NCBI RefSeq assembly: GCF_013464915.1
Contig: NZ_RAVT01000046.1
Location: 2-46,146 of the forward strand
Reading direction: 5' to 3'
Length of the DNA stretch: 46,145 bases
DNA from: Stenotrophomonas maltophilia
GTDB lineage: Bacteria > Pseudomonadota > Gammaproteobacteria > Xanthomonadales > Xanthomonadaceae
Shown here: positions 1,729 through 9,843 of the stretch, one piece after another
How the letters are laid out: the number at the start of each line of letters is the position of its first letter
How positions within the stretch are numbered: position 1 is the first letter of the stretch
Translations under genes and position numbers: made by a program
Notes under the pieces: model-generated
The model's database searches: none
Told to the model about the DNA's origin: nothing
Seen by the model: the letters and a program-made list of their open reading frames with translations, nothing else

Positions 1729-1808
1729 GAAACGTTCTCCGCGGAAAGTGAGCGAAAAACGCCGCAAGGCAAACAGGCGGGCGCAGGGCCGCTGAGGCCC
1801 TGTGGCAC

Positions 1809-1948
1809 CGTCTTCTTTCATCCGGACTATGACCGTCGGCTCCGGCATTGGACCGGATCTGCTGACCCCCGGCCGTGGGCCGGGGCGCTCGCGGGCTCGT
1901 GCTTGCGCACCTACCGCCGGTGGGGAATCGCACCCCGCCCTGAAGACG
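1809..1948 (-). promoter_or_regulatory. FMN riboswitch (RFN element)
   Basis: Read on the minus strand, it starts CGTCTTCAGGGCGGGGTG and continues with TTCCCCACCGGCGGTA, GCCCGCGAGC, GATCCGGTCC, GCCGGAGCCGACGGTCAT and AGTCCGGATGAAAGAAGACG. These are the conserved RFN blocks in the right order. Helix P1 is formed by CGTCTTC (1948-1942) pairing with GAAGACG (1815-1809). It ends about 80 nt before the ribE start. I see no long U-tract terminator between aptamer and gene, so control by sequestration of the ribosome binding site is more likely than transcription termination (inference). Confidence 0.95.
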
Positions 1949-1975
1949 TTTGTGTACCGGCGAACCGGCATCACC

Positions 1976-2138: not shown

Positions 2139-2759
2139 ATGCGCAAGATCCTGATCGTGGCCGCCCTGCTGGCCGCCGCCCCGTTCACCGCGTCGGCCGA
2201 CGCCCTGAGCTACACCTACGTTGAAGGCGGCTGGACGCAGGTCAAGGTTGACGACAACGCACTGGACGACCCGAAGGTCGACGGCGGCTACCTGCGTGGT
2301 TCGGTCGCACTTGCCGAACAGGTCTACGTGTTCGGTGGCTGGTCGCGTACCAGCAAGACCCGCCACTACGGCGAAGATTCGCTGAAGCTGGAACTGAACC
2401 AGCCGGAGCTGGGCATTGGTTACCACATGCCCTGGAGCGACCGCGTTGACTTCACCGCCGATGCCGCCTGGGTGCGCCAGAACGCTGAATCGACCCTGCG
2501 CTATGACGGCCTGCGTTACCACGGCAAGGACCACACCAACCTGGGCCGCGTCACCATGGGTATCCGCGGCAAGCCGTCGCGCATGACCGAAGCCTGGGCC
2601 AAGGCCGGCTACATGGATGGCGGCAACAACTTCAAGGGCACCTGGGTCGGCACCGTTGGTGGCCAGGTCAACTTCACCAGGACCTGGGGCCTGGTGGGTG
2701 AGATCGCCGGCTACCGCGACGTCACCCAGTACTCGGTGGGCGTGCGCGCCAGCTTCTGA
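2139..2759 (+). CDS. Ax21-like outer-membrane beta-barrel protein
   Basis: 206-aa exported protein. The signal peptide MRKILIVAALLAAAPFTASA is followed by SYTYVEGGWTQ and alternating beta-strand segments such as YVFGGWSRTSK and ELGIGYHMPWSDRVD. It ends in ...YSVGVRASF with a C-terminal Phe, as expected for insertion by the BAM machinery. The layout (SYxYVEGG start, GG-V-L near residue 45, final GVR-SF) matches the Ax21 family of xanthomonads, small barrel proteins of debated role. The ATG at 2139 has AGGA about 8 nt upstream; upstream in-frame codons would place the signal peptide internally. It is transcribed divergently from ribE and followed by a strong terminator. Assignment to the Ax21 family rests on pattern recognition. 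Confidence 0.8.
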   Translation: MRKILIVAALLAAAPFTASADALSYTYVEGGWTQVKVDDNALDDPKVDGGYLRGSVALAEQVYVFGGWSRTSKTRHYGEDSLKLELNQPELGIGYHMPWSDRVDFTADAAWVRQNAESTLRYDGLRYHGKDHTNLGRVTMGIRGKPSRMTEAWAKAGYMDGGNNFKGTWVGTVGGQVNFTRTWGLVGEIAGYRDVTQYSVGVRASF

Positions 2760-2788
2760 TCCAACGATCGCTCCTCGTCGTGCGATCG

Positions 2789-2817
2789 AACGGGCCCCGC
2801 AAGGGGCCCGTTTTTTT
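2789..2817 (+). terminator. Rho-independent terminator after the Ax21-like gene
   Basis: Stem cgggcccc/ggggcccg with a short loop, followed by seven T (2811-2817). It separates the barrel gene from the downstream array of exported proteins. Confidence 0.92.
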
Positions 2818-2911
2818 GGCCGGGGCACACCGCCATGTGACCTCTGGTCGCCATCGAAAGTATCGCTGGATGCGCTAGTCTTGCGCGCTTCTGGAACAGG
2901 AAAGCTCCGTC

Positions 2912-3796
2912 ATGAAGACTCTCAACCGTACCCTGCTGGCCAGCGCCCTGCTGTGTGCCCCGCTGTTTGCCAGCGCTGCACCGGCCCAGCTGACGCCCGA
3001 ACAGGCCTTCGACCTGTATGCACGCGTGCTGCTGGAAGACGACGCCGCCGCCACGCGCACGCTCAACGATGCACTGAAGCCGGCCTTCGAAGGCCAGGAC
3101 GCCGTGACCCCGACCCCGGGTGCGCTGGCCAAGGCCATGGCCGAGCCGTGGCAGACCGTGCTGGCCAGCGCCGGTACCAAGACCGACGCCGCCGCCACCG
3201 AAGCGCTGTATGCCAAGGCCCTGCGCGATTCGAAGTGCCGCGCGACCAAGAGCGTGATCGAAGACAACGAATACGTTGAAGACCAGAAGCTGGCGCGCAT
3301 CAGCTTCAGCTGCCAGGTGCCCGACCTCGGCAAGGTACGCCCGCTGTTCGCCGCCAGCCTGGCCGCCGATGCCAGCCCGGCCTCGCGCAAGCTGTTCACC
3401 GATGCCTACACCCAGGCGCTGCAGAGCGGCGCGCGCGTGCCGGTCAGCGGCACCTTCACCCTGTACCCGGCCAAGGACAACGGCTACTGGTACAGCGGCA
3501 ACTTCGACGATCTGGTAGGTACCGTGACCGGCGCGCTGGCACCGTTCGAGGACTGGATGCAGGACGCGCAGGCGGCCAACGCGCCGAAGGTGACCGGCGT
3601 ACCGGGCTGCGACCTGCTGCTGCAGCAGCATCGCGCCTGCGTGGCGAAGATCGCGCCGGACCAGATCAGCGGCGTGGACGCGATGGCCGAGGAACTGAAG
3701 GCAAAGGCCCAGGTACAGTCCGCCGAAGCGATGACGCAGGAGTGCAAGGCACTGCGCCCGATCGCGGAGATGATGTGGACCGATGAGTGCGCGTAA
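2912..3796 (+). CDS. Exported six-cysteine protein, paralogue 1 of 4
   Basis: Unknown function. 294 aa with signal peptide MKTLNRTLLASALLCAPLFASA. The mature part begins LTPEQAFDLYARVLLEDDAAA, an amphipathic segment repeated in the next three genes. Outside the signal peptide it has six cysteines in a pattern shared with paralogues 2 and 3: SKCRAT, SFSCQVPDL, PGCDLL, RACVAK, TQECKALRP and a C-terminal DECA. Three disulfides would fit a periplasmic or secreted protein. GGAACAGGAAAG precedes the ATG. There is no lipobox, no recognisable enzymatic motif and no obvious partner gene. It is the most regular member and may be the ancestral copy. I do not recognise the family by name. Confidence 0.85.
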   Translation: MKTLNRTLLASALLCAPLFASAAPAQLTPEQAFDLYARVLLEDDAAATRTLNDALKPAFEGQDAVTPTPGALAKAMAEPWQTVLASAGTKTDAAATEALYAKALRDSKCRATKSVIEDNEYVEDQKLARISFSCQVPDLGKVRPLFAASLAADASPASRKLFTDAYTQALQSGARVPVSGTFTLYPAKDNGYWYSGNFDDLVGTVTGALAPFEDWMQDAQAANAPKVTGVPGCDLLLQQHRACVAKIAPDQISGVDAMAEELKAKAQVQSAEAMTQECKALRPIAEMMWTDECA

Positions 3797-3923
3797 GCCG
3801 GCACAGTAGTTGCGTCAGCGATACGCATCGCTGACGGCAACGGCAACGCCATTTCAAACAAGTTGCATGGACAGCCAAGCGCAGGTGCAGCAGTCTTTCC
3901 GCCCCTGCCTTGATGGTATCGCC

Positions 3924-4817
3924 ATGCGCCGCTACGCCTTGTGCTTTTTCATTGCCTTGAGCATGCCTCTGTGCGTTGCCGCAGCGCCGGAGCCAACACC
4001 GGAAAAGGCATTCGACCTGCTGATCAAGGCAATGTACGAGAACGACCCCAGCGCTGTGCAGGCACTGGGTGGGCCGCAAACCGATGCGGACACCGACATG
4101 TTCACGCTGCCGGACCTGTTGGCCACATACCTCCAGAGCCTCAAGCGGTACAACGGCTCCGCCGCTGGCGACGATTCGGCACACCAGGCGTGGGCGTCAG
4201 ACGTCGTGGCCGGCTCCCGATGCAGGGCCGACCGCAGCGCGATCTGGCATGACGTGATTGCCGGCACCCAAGTGGCCGACGTCCACTTCACGTGTCGCGT
4301 TGGCGACGTGGAGCGCCTCCGGTCCTTGTCTGATGCCGCCCTCTTCGGCGGAACCGATCAAGGCCAGGAACGACTCTGGAAGTCGTACATGGCGATTTTG
4401 CGCGATGGCCCCTACCGCACCATCAGCGGCTCGACCCGTCTTGTGTCCTCCGCACCCGATCACGGCTGGCAAAGCGAACAGGATGGATATCGGGGTGAAC
4501 GACTGCGTTACGGCCGCATCGAACGCGATGTGGGACAGGTGCTGATCGAAGCGCTGGTCGAGCATCCGCGCGACCAGTCCAACGAGACCCTGCGCACCGC
4601 CATCATGCACATCACCGGCTTGGATGAATGCGACAACCTGGTCCACCACCATCGTCGCTGCATGGCCCGCATCGCGCCACAGGAGTTGGCCGGCGCCCAT
4701 GAACTGGCCCGGGTGCTGAGCAGAAGGCACAAGGAGGTCTCCGAGGCCGAGCTGGTACAGCAGTGCATGGCCCTTCGCCCGAGAGTGGAAGCATTGTGGA
4801 ACCGGGATTGCGAATGA
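3924..4817 (+). CDS. Exported six-cysteine protein, paralogue 2 of 4
   Basis: Unknown function. 297 aa when started at 3924, giving a clean signal peptide (MRRYALCFFIALSMPLCVAAA); the frame is open further upstream, with an ATG at 3867. The mature N-terminus PTPEKAFDLLIKAMYENDPSA aligns with paralogue 1. The six-cysteine pattern is conserved: SRCRADRS, HFTCRV, DECDNL, RRCMARIAPQ, QQCMALRP and terminal RDCE. The spacing RxC-x-ARIAP...CMALRP closely matches RAC-x-AKIAP...CKALRP in paralogue 1. Third-position GC looks somewhat lower than in neighbouring housekeeping genes, as in paralogues 3 and 4. It follows paralogue 1 after 127 bp without an evident terminator. Confidence 0.82.
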   Translation: MRRYALCFFIALSMPLCVAAAPEPTPEKAFDLLIKAMYENDPSAVQALGGPQTDADTDMFTLPDLLATYLQSLKRYNGSAAGDDSAHQAWASDVVAGSRCRADRSAIWHDVIAGTQVADVHFTCRVGDVERLRSLSDAALFGGTDQGQERLWKSYMAILRDGPYRTISGSTRLVSSAPDHGWQSEQDGYRGERLRYGRIERDVGQVLIEALVEHPRDQSNETLRTAIMHITGLDECDNLVHHHRRCMARIAPQELAGAHELARVLSRRHKEVSEAELVQQCMALRPRVEALWNRDCE

Positions 4818-4921
4818 GTAGTCCCCGGGTACCCGCCGCCTGGCAGGCTTTCGGACTTTTTGCATGGCTGCCGGCGTTGAATCGCCGCATGCGCTACAGC
4901 CGTTCACGCAAGGACCCGATC

Positions 4922-5833
4922 ATGCGGCTGTGTCATCTCATGACACTGGCATTGCTCCCCCTGCTCTCACAGGCTTCGCCCTTGCCACCGGCTCACCCCC
5001 AACTTGCATCCGCACCGGACCATGCCGTGGAAAAGAGCATCATCGCCAATGTCCAGCTCTACCTCGCGTTGATGCTCTACGCTGACCCTGGCGCGCGCCG
5101 CACGCTCGATGCCCAATGGCAGGGCACTTTCCAGACGCCTGGTTATCTCGATCGCCTGCAGGCGCTCAAGGCAAGGCTGGGCGATGACACCGCCATACGC
5201 AGCACCTTGGAATCTGCGGGCGTGGCCGCACCGGCCATCGGCGAAGCGGCGTTGAATCGCCTTGGGCGCGTCAGCTGCGAGGTGAAGGCTGTGCGCTTCG
5301 AGGCGACCAACAGTTCCGCATCAGCTTCCTATCGATGCTCTGTCCCCGACCTCAATCCTTTGTTTGCGTCCTACCGCAAAGCAACGCGAGGAGGAGTATT
5401 GACGATGGAGCCCGCAGATATGTCCGACCTCCAAGCGCGTCAGGTCACGTTGCTGCATGGACCCGCCTCGCGGTCGATCTCAGGTGACATGCGTTTCTTC
5501 CGCAGCAGCAAGGGCACTTGGTTGAGCCTCGATGCCGACCAGCTCGAACTGAAGCTCCTGGATGCCTTCATTCCCTATGCGGCGTGGGACAAGCGCATGC
5601 TTGAGGAAGACGCGCCCCGGATCACCGGATCGATCGCCTGTGACTGGCCGCTGCACCAGTACCGCATGTGCGTAGTCGAAAGATCACCGCAGCAGATCCA
5701 GCAGGCCAAGTCTCTACAGACCAAGGTGCTGGAGGCCACAAGGGGAATGGACGAGCGGCAGCGTGCCGACTATTGCAACACCCACGTCGCACCCGTCGTG
5801 TACCCGCAACTCAGGAGCCATCAGTGCCGATAG
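4922..5833 (+). CDS. Exported six-cysteine protein, paralogue 3 of 4
   Basis: Unknown function. 303 aa started at the ATG at 4922, with AAGGA about 9 nt upstream and signal peptide MRLCHLMTLALLPLLSQASP. It is the most divergent full-length copy: the N-terminal helix is VEKSIIANVQLYLALMLYADP. The cysteine pattern is kept: RVSCEVKA, SYRCSVPDLNPLF, IACDWPL, RMCVVERSP, DYCNTHVAP and terminal HQCR. The VPDL motif after the second Cys is shared with paralogue 1. It ends at 5833, overlapping the GTG start of the next gene by 10 nt, so the last two genes are probably coupled. Confidence 0.82.
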   Translation: MRLCHLMTLALLPLLSQASPLPPAHPQLASAPDHAVEKSIIANVQLYLALMLYADPGARRTLDAQWQGTFQTPGYLDRLQALKARLGDDTAIRSTLESAGVAAPAIGEAALNRLGRVSCEVKAVRFEATNSSASASYRCSVPDLNPLFASYRKATRGGVLTMEPADMSDLQARQVTLLHGPASRSISGDMRFFRSSKGTWLSLDADQLELKLLDAFIPYAAWDKRMLEEDAPRITGSIACDWPLHQYRMCVVERSPQQIQQAKSLQTKVLEATRGMDERQRADYCNTHVAPVVYPQLRSHQCR

Positions 5834-6534
5834 AAGGCACGTACGGGCATGGCTCCCACCGCAATGCGGCGCTGCGTATGAAGGTTGTGCCCCTTCTGCT
5901 GGGCGTCGTGGCGTGCAGCGCTTCAGGCGCCACGCCGTCACCCGAACACGAGTACACCCTGCAGGCCCGGGTTCTGCTGCAGGACGATGCCAGCGCGCGG
6001 GCGGTGCTTGCAGAACTGGGGCCGGGCTGGGTACCGCATGGGCGCATTGAGTGGCAGGACATCGTTGATGACGTGCCGGCATGGCTGGGCAATCAGACAT
6101 TTCCCGCCCCCTCTCCCGCCATCGTCGGCGCGTTCAGCGATGCGCTGGGCGCACGGCTGGCAACGGTTTACTGCGAAGCCAGGAACTTCCTTCCGCTGGG
6201 CTCACCGGAAATTGGCATGTTTGCACTGGAATGCCGGCACCCCGATATGACGCCGCTGCGCGAGGCTTATCTGGCACTGCGCGAGGCGGAGCAGAGTGAC
6301 CGTCAGGCGCAGAGCGACGCGCTGTTCAAACGCTGGACAACGATCCTGCGTGATGCCCCGGACCGTGCCCACTGCACAGCGGTGACCGGTTGGTATAAGG
6401 GAGACCACGAAGCTACCGATGCCGCCCGCGCGCAACAGCTGTACCGGGCCGTGTTGGCGGGACTGCTACCGCTGGATGCGTGGGATGCACGCGGTATGGG
6501 TGAGGACACCTCTGCACTGTGCAGGGTCCGCTGA
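5824..6534 (+). CDS. Exported six-cysteine protein, paralogue 4 of 4, C-terminally truncated
   Basis: 236 aa. I prefer the GTG start at 5824 because AGGAG lies about 7 nt upstream; an ATG at 5878 gives a shorter signal peptide (MKVVPLLLGVVACSASGATP) but lacks a ribosome binding site. The mature start SPEHEYTLQARVLLQDDASA matches paralogue 1. Cysteines 1 and 2 are present (VYCEAR, ALECRHPDMTPL). The chain stops shortly after AWDARGMGEDTSALC, at the level of the third family cysteine, so the C-terminal module with Cys 4-6 and the ALRP motif is missing. A SMAG-like hairpin follows 30 nt after the stop. It may be a decaying copy or a shortened functional variant. Confidence 0.72.
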   Translation: MPIEGTYGHGSHRNAALRMKVVPLLLGVVACSASGATPSPEHEYTLQARVLLQDDASARAVLAELGPGWVPHGRIEWQDIVDDVPAWLGNQTFPAPSPAIVGAFSDALGARLATVYCEARNFLPLGSPEIGMFALECRHPDMTPLREAYLALREAEQSDRQAQSDALFKRWTTILRDAPDRAHCTAVTGWYKGDHEATDAARAQQLYRAVLAGLLPLDAWDARGMGEDTSALCRVR

Positions 6535-6563
6535 CAGAGTGCCAGGGCACGTGAAGCCCATGC

Positions 6564-6583
6564 GCCGACCAAGGTCGGCATCC
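6564..6583. repeat. SMAG-like palindrome between convergent genes
   Basis: GCCGACC-AA-GGTCGGC stem followed by ATCCACC; on the minus strand it reads GGTGGATGCCGACCTTGGTC, a diverged form of the GTAGATGCC... repeat seen elsewhere in the window. It lies in the 58-bp gap between paralogue 4 and the ribD stop and could end transcription from both sides. Confidence 0.6.
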
Positions 6584-6592
6584 ACCAGCGCC

Positions 6593-7678
6593 TTATACCC
6601 GCAGCAGCAACCGCAGGTCGTCCCCTACCTGGCGCTGGTCGACCACACGCAGCCGGCGCTGCTGGTCCATCGTCTGGATGCCAAGGCCAGCCAGCAGCGG
6701 GCGTCCGTTGTCGCCCAGCAGCGTAGGCGCCTGGTACAACAGCAGCTCATCCGCCCAGCCGCCACGCAGCAGCGCACCTGCCAATGTCGCACCGGCCTCG
6801 GTGTGCACTTCGTTGATGCCACGTTCGGCCAGCAGTGCCAGCACCGCGCCCAGGTCCAACCGGCCATCGACGCTGGCCACGCTGGCGAATTCGGCGTCGG
6901 CCGCATCCGGCGCACTGACTGCAGCATCGTGCAGATACAGCGTCGGCGCCCCGCCCTCGCGTACACGGCTGCATTCAAGCGAACGCAGGCGCGAATCGAG
7001 CACCACGCGCAGCGGCGGCATCACCTCGGTATCGGCCAGACGCACGGTCAGCATCGGGTCGTCGGCCAGCACGGTGTCGGCACCGGTCAGGATCGCACCC
7101 GCACGCGCGCGCCAGTGCTGCACGTCTTCACGCGCGGCCGGGCCGGTGATCCACTTGGAGCTGCCATCGGCCATCGCGGTACGGCCATCGAGGCTGGCGG
7201 CCAGCTTCACCCGCAGCCACGGACGGTTGCGCTCCACGCGTGACAGGAAGCCCTTGTTGAGCTCGCGCGCCTGCGCCGCCATCAGTCCTTCGGCAACCTC
7301 GATGCCGGCATTGCGCAGCAGATCGAAGCCACCGCCATCGACCTTCGGGAACGGATCGCGCATCGCGGCAACCACGCGCGACACGCCCGCCTCGATCAGT
7401 GCCAGCGCACACGGTGGCGTACGACCGTAGTGTGCGCAGGGTTCCAGCGTGACGTAGGCGGTGGCGCCGCGTGCCTCGCCGCCGGCCTCGCGCAGCGCGA
7501 ACACCTCGGCATGCGGTCCACCGGCGCGCTGGTGCCAGCCCTGCCCGACCACGCGTTCGCCATGGGCGATCACGCAGCCGACCATCGGATTGGGGCGGGT
7601 GGTGTAGGCGGCACGCTCGGCCAGGCGCAGCGCGTTGGCCATGTGCAGGTGGTCGAGGACGGAGAACGGAGTGGTCAT
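6593..7678 (-). CDS. ribD: Bifunctional diaminohydroxyphosphoribosylaminopyrimidine deaminase / 5-amino-6-(5-phosphoribosylamino)uracil reductase
   Basis: Carries out the second and third steps of riboflavin synthesis in the cytosol. 361 aa. The N-terminal deaminase has the zinc site H56-A-E58 (PHAEVFAL) and PC81AHYGRTPPC90. The C-terminal reductase begins near 145 with the RVKLAASLDGRTAM segment and SKWITGP. The ATG at 7678 gives the conserved N-terminus (MTTPFSVLDHLHMANALRLAE); no strong Shine-Dalgarno is visible. It follows nrdR on the same strand, with a SMAG dimer between. ribE, normally adjacent, is about 4.9 kb away behind an opposite-strand block. Confidence 0.95.
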   Translation of the reverse strand: MTTPFSVLDHLHMANALRLAERAAYTTRPNPMVGCVIAHGERVVGQGWHQRAGGPHAEVFALREAGGEARGATAYVTLEPCAHYGRTPPCALALIEAGVSRVVAAMRDPFPKVDGGGFDLLRNAGIEVAEGLMAAQARELNKGFLSRVERNRPWLRVKLAASLDGRTAMADGSSKWITGPAAREDVQHWRARAGAILTGADTVLADDPMLTVRLADTEVMPPLRVVLDSRLRSLECSRVREGGAPTLYLHDAAVSAPDAADAEFASVASVDGRLDLGAVLALLAERGINEVHTEAGATLAGALLRGGWADELLLYQAPTLLGDNGRPLLAGLGIQTMDQQRRLRVVDQRQVGDDLRLLLRV

Positions 7679-8469: not shown

Positions 8470-8919
8470 TCAGCCGGCCGGGCCGGACACCGTAGTATTC
8501 CCGCTCCAGCGCAACCACGCCAGATGTGCGGCCGGCAGCAGGAACGGCGGCCCCAGGCCCAGGTAGCTCAACAGCGCGAATTCGCCGTTCTTGAACACCA
8601 GATGCAGCGTTACGGCGACCACAGCCAGTGCGGCCAGGACGCCCACCAGCAATCCCGCCCACGCCGCAGGCGACGATTGCCGCAGGCCGGCACGGCCGCG
8701 CAACAGGAATACACCGCTCAGCCACAGCCATGACAGCAGGCCGATGATCCCGCCCAGCGACCACAGCAGCAGCATCGTGAGTTCGTTACCGGACAGATAC
8801 TTGCCGTCCATCGCAACCATCAGCCCCAGCACCGCGACGGTGCCGCCGGCGGCAAGCGCAGGCAGGCCAAGCAAGAGACCCCCCACTGCAACCATCCGTT
8901 TCTGCACACGCTCATCCAT
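8470..8919 (-). CDS. Small membrane protein, paralogue 1 of a tandem trio
   Basis: 149 aa, unknown function. Four hydrophobic segments: about 10-33 (AVGGLLLGLPALAAGGTVAVLG), 48-70, 83-105 and 115-135. It begins MDERVQKR, like the two genes upstream (MDERRLRYLY, MDERRLKYLY), and keeps GLP-L--GGTVAV, WLWLSGVFLLRGRAGL and a C-terminal GPPFLLPAAHLAWL. The cytoplasmic RGRAGL loop between TM2 and TM3 is shared with paralogue 2. AAAGGAAA lies about 10 nt before the ATG. It is the most diverged copy and the last of the three, 150 bp before nrdR. No catalytic or transporter signature is seen. Confidence 0.82.
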   Translation of the reverse strand: MDERVQKRMVAVGGLLLGLPALAAGGTVAVLGLMVAMDGKYLSGNELTMLLLWSLGGIIGLLSWLWLSGVFLLRGRAGLRQSSPAAWAGLLVGVLAALAVVAVTLHLVFKNGEFALLSYLGLGPPFLLPAAHLAWLRWSGNTTVSGPAG

Positions 8920-8946
8920 GGGTTCGATTTCCTTTCATTGGCCGCG

Positions 8947-9363
8947 TCAGGGGCGGCGTTTGAGCCACACCAGCATGGCGGCCGGTACCAGCATCGACGG
9001 CCCCAGCAGCAATAGTTCCAACGCGGCGTCCCCCTCCTGGAAGCCGAACCATGCGGTCATCCAGAGAACCGGCAGCGCGGCCAGCCCACCGGCCAGCAGC
9101 AGCCACCACCAGATCGCGCGCACCTGCAGGCCGGCCCGGCCCTGCAGCAGGTAGCCGGCGCTGAGCCACAGCCAGGCCAGGCAACCCGCCACGCCGGCCA
9201 GGCCCCACAGCAGTGGCGCCAGATCGGGTGAGCGGCTGGCGCCGAAGGAGTGCAGGCCAAGGACCAGGAACATCACGGCGACGGTGCCGCCCATCACCAG
9301 GCTGGGCAGGCCGAGCAGTACCGCCAACGCGGCATACAGGTATCTGAGGCGGCGCTCATCCAC
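8947..9363 (-). CDS. Small membrane protein, paralogue 2 of a tandem trio
   Basis: 138 aa, unknown function, four predicted TM helices. It starts at GTG (9363); the 5' DNA ggagtaaccgcgcGTGGATGA is nearly identical to the start region of paralogue 3 (ggagtaacgcgcATGGATGA), so the duplication included the ribosome binding site. The upstream gene's TAA is embedded in the GGAGTAA motif, 6 nt before this start, which implies coupled translation. Conserved positions are MDERRLRYLYAALAVLLGLP, WLWLSAGYLLQGRAGL and LLLLGPSMLVPAAMLVWL. Confidence 0.82.
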   Translation of the reverse strand: MDERRLRYLYAALAVLLGLPSLVMGGTVAVMFLVLGLHSFGASRSPDLAPLLWGLAGVAGCLAWLWLSAGYLLQGRAGLQVRAIWWWLLLAGGLAALPVLWMTAWFGFQEGDAALELLLLGPSMLVPAAMLVWLKRRP

Positions 9364-9369
9364 GCGCGG

Positions 9370-9843
9370 TTACTCCGATGCCCGTGCCCGCTCGGGCGGC
9401 GCATCCACGACATCGGCACGCGCACGTAGAAGCATCAGCATGCCGGCAGGCACCAGCAACGATGGCCCTGCGAAGAGAGTGCTCACTACCGCCAGGCCCA
9501 GCCCGGACAAGGTGTACATCGCCAATCCCAGCAACGGCAGCCCCGCCAGCACGCCCAGGCCCAGCAGCCACCACCAGCGTGGCGAGGCCGTGCGCAGGCC
9601 CTGCAGTCCATCACGCAACCAGATGACGCTGAGCGCGACCCAGGCCACCAGGCCGGCAAGCGCGGCCGTTCCCCAGACGCACATGACGCCGGCAAACCAA
9701 AGCTTGTCAGCATCCAGCGAGACCAGGCCGATCAGCCCCATGACCAGGGCAATGCAGGCACCGACGCCGCCCGCGAAAAGGCTGGGCAGGCCGAACAGCG
9801 CGGCCAGCACGGCGTACAGGTATTTGAGGCGGCGCTCATCCAT
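9370..9843 (-). CDS. Small membrane protein, paralogue 3 of a tandem trio
   Basis: 157 aa, unknown function, four predicted TM helices (about 8-40, 48-73, 89-110, 118-139). It has the family start MDERRLKYLYAVLAALFGLP and family end FAGPSLLVPAGMLMLL, then a charged hydrophilic tail ending RARASE that the other two lack. It is the first gene after glyA on this strand; a 39-nt palindrome (9862-9900) lies in the gap and may act as a terminator or processing site. Confidence 0.82.
   Translation of the reverse strand: MDERRLKYLYAVLAALFGLPSLFAGGVGACIALVMGLIGLVSLDADKLWFAGVMCVWGTAALAGLVAWVALSVIWLRDGLQGLRTASPRWWWLLGLGVLAGLPLLGLAMYTLSGLGLAVVSTLFAGPSLLVPAGMLMLLRARADVVDAPPERARASE

What the first reader, a model, noticed from the sequence alone, without database searches (positions are those of the whole stretch)
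2912..6534. Tandem array of four exported proteins with a conserved six-cysteine pattern
The four products share an N-terminal helix (EQAFDLYARVLLEDD-like), and the three complete ones share six cysteines in the frame C...FxCxVxDL...CD-x6-RxC...CxALRP...C-terminal C. I recognise no known family. Tandem duplication with strong divergence suggests a fast-evolving secreted or periplasmic system, for example interference with other cells, a host-facing factor, or inhibitors. No partner enzyme is adjacent.
Basis: partly seen in the sequence, partly recalled or inferred. Interest (0 to 1): 0.75.

Follow-up and report, generated by a model that had tools for sequence, protein, structure and literature searches.

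The report
Variable array of disulphide-rich exported proteins
In Stenotrophomonas, a row of related, apparently exported proteins of a family without a curated name differs from strain to strain behind one conserved founder gene, a pattern like that of bacterial immunity repertoires, although what they bind is not known.

Summary
Four homologous genes with signal-peptide-like N-termini fill 2912-6534 of a Stenotrophomonas-type contig; three carry six cysteines in one frame. The fourth is not a broken copy but a shorter architecture also seen in other strains. No Pfam or NCBIfam model reaches its cut-off. Homology is firm (held-out profile E 1e-15 to 1e-22). AlphaFold gives an N-terminal alpha+beta domain resembling NTF2-like folds, with an invariant cysteine pair, and a C-terminal three-helix bundle whose four cysteines probably pair 1-3 and 2-4 (inferred from co-loss). 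That bundle also occurs as a separate gene. In 24 loci the block lies between an OmpO/Ax21-like porin gene and ribD: a founder (P0001, dN/dS 0.14) plus a tail in 14 arrangements, with a fusion and truncations; 13 of 19 tail starts examined have a shared 19-base element 71-77 bases upstream. Tail genes evolve faster (about 0.27-0.48) but under constraint. In two strains a PAAR/DUF4123/Tox-REase-5/Imm52-type cassette sits beside the founder. No cognate toxin was found, and the family does not track the T4SS. Best reading, at 0.38: a diversifying exported repertoire of antagonists (immunity or inhibitor proteins). A general envelope-binding role is the main rival.

The parts
2912..3796 (+). P0001, founder gene: signal-peptide-like N-terminus, N-terminal alpha+beta domain (NTD), C-terminal four-cysteine three-helix domain (CTD)
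   Evidence: orthologues at 84-95% identity in 19 and about 53-61% in 3 of the 23 named related loci, split over two frames in the remaining one, L027; AlphaFold pLDDT 88.4, pTM 0.76
3572..3793 (+). CTD of P0001 (residues 221-294): three-helix bundle, Cys spacing 10-35-15
   Evidence: AlphaFold of this piece alone pLDDT 88.5
3924..4817 (+). P0002, NTD+CTD paralogue; relatives in L023 and L107
4922..5833 (+). P0003, NTD+CTD paralogue; relative in L108
5878..6534 (+). P0004, NTD-only paralogue with an extra Cys pair C166/C215; relatives in L008, L021, L024, L106, L107 and half of a fused gene in L015
3852..3870 (+). 19-base element TTTCAAACAAGTTGCATGG, 72 bases before the P0002 start (family form TTTCAGACAAGTTGCATGG)
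   Evidence: the only match with up to 3 mismatches in this genome
4849..4867 (+). weak copy of the same element (4 mismatches), 73 bases before the P0003 start
2139..2759 (+). left boundary gene: outer-membrane beta-barrel (Pfam OMP_b-brl above cut-off; OmpO/Ax21 NCBIfam model below its cut-off)
6593..7678 (-). right boundary gene: ribD (name from sequence knowledge and position beside the other rib genes; not scanned)

Best explanation
The locus is a hypervariable array of exported (periplasmic or secreted) binding proteins. Each has an NTF2-like alpha+beta domain closed by one disulphide, with or without a disulphide-tied three-helix bundle. A conserved founder stays at one end while duplication, loss and recombination change the paralogues behind it; most transcription units of the tail seem to start at a shared 19-base element. 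The most likely work is antagonism by binding: each paralogue recognises and neutralises a different incoming protein (a toxin or wall-attacking enzyme of a competitor), so strains keep a changing set of specificities. Shown here: homology, two-domain architecture by prediction, array turnover, constraint on the tail genes, no toxin domain by sequence. Inferred: export, disulphide pairing, fold class, the element as a promoter. Inferred and untested: binding of foreign proteins, neutralisation.
For: 24 loci share the frame porin - founder - tail - ribD (the porin match is missing in L026), with 97 to 5518 bases between founder and ribD, 10 sequence groups and 14 arrangements. dN/dS: founder 0.137, ribD 0.056, nrdR 0.024; tail groups medians 0.29-0.48 on 2-3 usable pairs each, closest P0002 pair 0.268, the single P0003 pair 0.279 with dS 1.40. 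GC3 falls along the window array: 0.87, 0.77, 0.73, 0.72. L015 holds an in-frame fusion of two members (N part best match 45% to L011, C part 69% to L008); L011 holds truncated members. 13 of 19 tail starts examined have the element 71-77 bases upstream, counting the weak one before P0003; of the 6 without it, 5 overlap or start within 86 bases of the preceding member. Only D44 and the two NTD cysteines are invariant over 17 diverse members, which speaks for a scaffold rather than an enzyme. Beside the founder, L023 carries PAAR, DUF4123, Tox-REase-5 and Imm52 genes; L012 has the same gene order by sequence. A like pattern is published for the tandem T7SS immunity genes esaG and tipC (PMC9484751, abstract and outline seen).
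Against: No toxin was found paired with a member in the loci examined; in the window's genome the 10 XVIPCD effector matches lie on other contigs. 14 of 45 family-positive genus genomes have no XVIPCD match. The relatives in the unnamed genus g16 (12 genomes examined, one match reported in each) are NTD-only-sized genes, in 12 of 12 next to a conserved four-gene cluster that is STM4011-STM4014 in the one genome scanned, which looks like an ordinary cellular job. No mobile-element link: no match in plasmids, phages or viral contigs (one query each). Arrays are not purely one family: L010 and L011 hold other genes among the members, without Pfam match. The founder is split in one assembly (L027, same contig as L102), so it may be dispensable, unless that is a sequencing error. 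The element is absent at 3 mismatches from 2 of 6 further genomes with the family.
Confidence: 0.38

Rival explanations
1. General periplasmic binding or envelope-maintenance proteins (small-ligand or peptide binding in an NTF2-like cavity). The founder does a cellular job and the tail is lineage-specific expansion under weak selection.
For: Copy in a stable neighbourhood in 12 of 12 g16 genomes examined; founder constrained at dN/dS 0.137; further copies outside the array, behind a recJ-like gene (L096-L099) and near another gene block (L100, L101); NTF2-like folds often bind small molecules (established knowledge, recalled).
Against: Replacement of whole groups between related strains and a dedicated upstream element go beyond simple duplication; tail genes remain under constraint.
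Confidence: 0.33
2. Secreted offensive or host-facing proteins (for example type II secretion substrates) diversifying under recognition by targets.
For: Signal-peptide-like N-termini and conserved cysteines; fast tail evolution.
Against: No toxin or effector domain at meaningful scores for the members scanned in Pfam, NCBIfam, PADLOC or PHROGs; the sub-threshold rows include DpdC at E 0.033 for P0004 and a beta-lactamase model at 17.7 bits against a cut-off of 525 for the CTD-only protein; no conserved candidate catalytic residues.
Confidence: 0.14
3. Cognate immunity proteins of the genome's own XVIPCD (X-T4SS) effectors.
For: The genome has 10 XVIPCD matches, and a studied S. maltophilia immunity protein, Smlt3025, is exported (PMC6759196, passages).
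Against: Not on the same contig as any XVIPCD match; 14 of 45 family-positive genomes lack XVIPCD matches and 20 of 36 family-negative ones have them; Smlt3025 is built on an eight-stranded sheet like FrpD, unlike the model here.
Confidence: 0.05

Closest known systems
Tandem T7SS immunity paralogues esaG and tipC (PMC9484751, abstract and outline seen)
   Same: Strings of non-identical paralogues, copy number differs between strains, recombination among copies
   Different: Those belong to known toxins in firmicutes; here the proteins look exported, carry conserved cysteine pairs, and no toxin is known
X-T4SS immunity proteins such as Smlt3025 (PMC6759196, passages seen)
   Same: Exported proteins of S. 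maltophilia of about 300 residues
   Different: Eight-stranded sheet, encoded beside its effector; this array has no effector beside it
YcdA of Bacillus subtilis (4r4g) and NTF2-like domains (YchJ, TcpC-type protein, PBP2a N-terminal domain, CaMKII hub)
Acquired interbacterial defence (orphan immunity) arrays of gut Bacteroides (recalled, not looked up)
   Same: Immunity-like genes gathered away from their toxins
   Different: Those mix unrelated families; this array is mainly one family, and immunity is not shown
CHCH / twin CX9C helical hairpins
   Same: CX9C spacing in the CTD; one sub-threshold Pfam COX17 row (E 0.052)
   Different: Co-loss suggests pairs 1-3 and 2-4 in a three-helix bundle, not 1-4 and 2-3 (the CHCH pairing is recalled)

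Membership tests
X-T4SS immunity proteins (X-Tfi) | Encoded next to an XVIPCD effector | tested here: not met
   10 XVIPCD matches on contigs C19, C58, C71, C86, C93, C104; family members found by P0001 only on C78
X-T4SS immunity proteins (X-Tfi) | Neutralises its effector | not testable with these tools
   needs binding or competition assays
Tandem immunity-paralogue arrays (esaG/tipC kind) | Tandem non-identical paralogues with copy-number differences between strains | tested here: met
Tandem immunity-paralogue arrays (esaG/tipC kind) | Recombination between copies | tested here: inconclusive
   in-frame fusion in L015 and truncated members in L011, but no formal recombination test was run
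Tandem immunity-paralogue arrays (esaG/tipC kind) | Cognate toxin known or adjacent | tested here: not met
   none seen among the window's ORFs; the PAAR/Tox-REase-5 cassette of L023 has its own Imm52
NTF2-like superfamily | Cone-like alpha+beta fold | tested here: inconclusive
NTF2-like superfamily | Sequence match to a curated NTF2-like model | tested here: not met
   no such Pfam row for the four NTDs at E up to 10, with HMMER's filters on
Known lysozyme-inhibitor families (Ivy, MliC, PliI, LprI) | Match to the curated Pfam model | tested here: not met
   none listed for the NTD or CTD pieces at E up to 10, with HMMER's filters on
Polymorphic toxins or secreted effectors | Recognisable toxin domain | tested here: not met
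   none above cut-off for P0001-P0004

The most novel reading that the evidence does not exclude
An undescribed exported immunity repertoire: a modular family (NTF2-like domain and disulphide-tied three-helix bundle, each also found alone) in which a conserved founder anchors a recombining, separately transcribed tail of specificities, giving each Stenotrophomonas strain its own extracytoplasmic set of antagonists against competitors' proteins.
Probability: 0.3. Interest if true: 0.72.

Novelty: new variant of a known kind. Interest (0 to 1): 0.47.

Why it matters
If it is a repertoire of exported antagonists, its strain-by-strain content would be a readable record of the attacks each Stenotrophomonas strain has met, and each member would be bait for an unknown toxin or enzyme. 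Even without that, it is a family without a curated model, with a clean modular architecture, at a hotspot (porin to ribD) that in some strains also holds a T6SS-type toxin-immunity cassette or a helicase gene.

Tried and rejected
Cognate X-T4SS immunity: rejected on location and co-occurrence. Spread by phage or plasmid: no match for P0001 in plasmids, P0002 in phages, P0001 in viral contigs; one member per collection, so weak. Known family by sequence: sub-threshold rows only (Pfam LodA_C, DUF6030, COX17 and others; NCBIfam; PADLOC and PHROGs). The one PDB profile row, a TetR at E 0.71, is noise; P0001 alone found none. The sigma-70 promoter and terminator scan found none in 2740-6620; a GC-rich inverted repeat followed by T's behind the porin gene is visible by eye but was not called. 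The 19-base element is not a genome-wide regulon: 1 match in this genome; in six further family-positive genomes 12 matches in 4 of 6, of which 8 lie at the array and 4 elsewhere, none in G711 and G697. Class-wide search: 6 of 369 genomes, the four outside the genus at weak E-values, of which one was looked at (L109, a short-chain-dehydrogenase-like frame by eye). Literature searches for XVIPCD and immunity in S. maltophilia, Stenotrophomonas + ribD + tandem + immunity, NTF2-like + immunity protein + periplasmic + tandem, guessed locus tags Smlt0694-0699, orphan immunity genes and STM4011 gave no paper on this locus in the listings; this does not show absence from print. The fold of the CTD alone was predicted but not searched against structures.
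Full report
What is there. The window lies on contig C78 of a genome of 4.65 Mb, Stenotrophomonas-type by its named relatives. Between an OmpO/Ax21-like porin gene (2139-2759) and ribD (6593-7678, minus strand) stand four plus-strand genes, P0001-P0004, exactly within the finding's coordinates. The longest ORF starts of P0002-P0004 are earlier TTG/GTG codons; the ATG starts at 3924, 4922 and 5878 give signal-peptide-like N-termini. Export is judged by eye only. P0004 has a lipobox-like stretch before a cysteine, so lipidation is possible for some members.

One family. P0001 finds the other three in the same genome at E 6e-25, 4e-11 and 7e-3 and nothing else there at E up to 1. Profiles built without the tested clade recover P0002, P0003 and P0004 at E 1.9e-19, 5.9e-22 and 2.3e-15 with the search space set to 1e6. 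An iterated profile found 63 ORFs of the family in the 24 Stenotrophomonas-type loci and 14 loci of other genera examined. For the members scanned, no Pfam or NCBIfam model reaches its cut-off.

Cysteines. C109 and C134 are invariant in 17 diverse members and face each other across the first hairpin by register (strands 109-118 and 126-137), so they most likely pair. In the CTD, 58 distinct segments were counted: 49 have four cysteines at spacing 10-34/35-15/17, 7 keep only the first and third, none keeps another pair. The other two are one segment that begins inside the CTD, at the edge of its locus by my reading (L116), and one degenerate remnant (L018). Many segments are close orthologues, so the 7 may stem from one or two events. 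Joint loss of the second and fourth points to pairs 1-3 and 2-4. The P0004 group has a further pair (C166, C215) that is missing as a pair in L024. Bond distances were not measured: no model coordinates were at hand. P0002-P0004 were not folded.

Array turnover. In the window and 23 named related loci the order is porin, founder, tail, ribD (no porin match in L026), with 97 to 5518 bases between founder and ribD. Six of 24 have the founder alone. Grouping at 42% identity gives 10 groups and 14 arrangements (13 if the split founder of L027 is counted as one gene). The grouping is single-linkage, so group A also holds some tail members; L010, L015 and L016 are cut by contig or fetch limits outside the array. 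L014 has a member on the other side of the founder. L015 carries an in-frame fusion of two members, and L011 truncated ones; L010 and L011 also hold other genes among the members, without Pfam match. By a simple Nei-Gojobori count the founder has dN/dS 0.137 (171 pairs of 19 sequences), against 0.056 for ribD, 0.024 for nrdR and 0.324 for the porin. Tail groups give medians 0.29-0.48 on 2 or 3 usable pairs each (8 of 10 P0004-group pairs were set aside for saturated dS); the closest P0002 pair gives 0.268, and the single P0003 pair 0.279 at dS 1.40. So the tail proteins appear constrained but faster. 13 of 19 tail starts examined have the element TTTCAGACAAGTTGCATGG or a variant 71-77 bases upstream of the ATG, including the weak one before P0003; of the 6 without, 5 overlap or start within 86 bases of the preceding member and the sixth (L024) starts 98 bases behind the founder. 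The three founder starts printed lack it. It also precedes small membrane-protein genes behind nrdR in L009, L016 and L017.

Distribution. At E 1e-3, 45 of 81 genus genomes have the family; in three of the 45 (G678, G698, G700) the only copy reported is the one behind a recJ-like gene. With P0001 as query 24 of 297 family-level genomes match, in 4 of 54 genera; with the profile 14 of 299 order-level genomes and 6 of 369 class-level genomes, four of these weakly. The first look of these searches scores a capped number of candidates per genome, so copies may be missed. In 12 of 12 g16 genomes examined the gene sits beside a conserved four-gene cluster, which in the one scanned (L065) is STM4011-STM4014.

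Surroundings. In L023 a PAAR protein, a DUF4123 protein, a Tox-REase-5 protein and an Imm52 protein, all above Pfam cut-offs, lie between the porin and the founder. L012 shows the same genes by sequence. L020 has a helicase-like protein with DUF2726 at the same point. The site therefore takes up other cargo, part of it of competition type, which is context, not proof.

Mechanism. I commit to exported antagonists by binding at 0.38: turnover with constraint, no conserved catalytic candidates, modular disulphide scaffold, and a published analogue of recombining tandem immunity paralogues (PMC9484751, abstract). Against it stand the missing toxin, the ordinary-looking copies in g16, and lack of association with the X-T4SS: 31 of 45 family-positive and 20 of 36 family-negative genomes have XVIPCD matches. 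A general envelope-binding role follows at 0.33.

Novelty. The array behaviour is of a known kind; the protein family, its two modules and the founder-plus-tail layout I found described nowhere in the searches made, which is not proof that it is unpublished.

Noticed in passing
window 8470-9843: A second tandem array: three paralogous small membrane-type proteins (35-46% identical) on the minus strand behind nrdR; their number seems to differ between strains. The 19-base element precedes other small membrane-type genes in that region of L009, L016 and L017; their relation to the three was not tested.
   Followed up: partly
L023:2958-5848 and L012:3027-5833: PAAR, DUF4123, Tox-REase-5 and Imm52 genes between the porin gene and the founder (Pfam for L023; L012 by sequence).
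   Followed up: partly
L020:3143-5923: A 927-residue helicase-like frame with DUF2726 at the same site between porin gene and founder.
   Followed up: partly
window 2139-2759: The neighbouring OmpO/Ax21-like porin gene itself evolves fast: dN/dS 0.324 over 171 pairs, identity 60-98% to the window copy in the 22 loci with a match.
   Followed up: no
L025: A record titled Bacillus subtilis carries this Stenotrophomonas-type locus (ribE, nrdR and ribD at 88-94% identity), so it is probably mislabelled or contaminated.
   Followed up: no
window 1806-1951: FMN riboswitch (RF00050, 107.9 bits) on the minus strand, upstream of the ribE-like gene.
   Followed up: no
L096-L101: Further family copies outside the array: NTD-only-sized behind recJ-like genes (L096-L099) and with CTD-like cysteines near another gene block (L100, L101) in unnamed same-genus genomes (gene names recalled).
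   Followed up: partly
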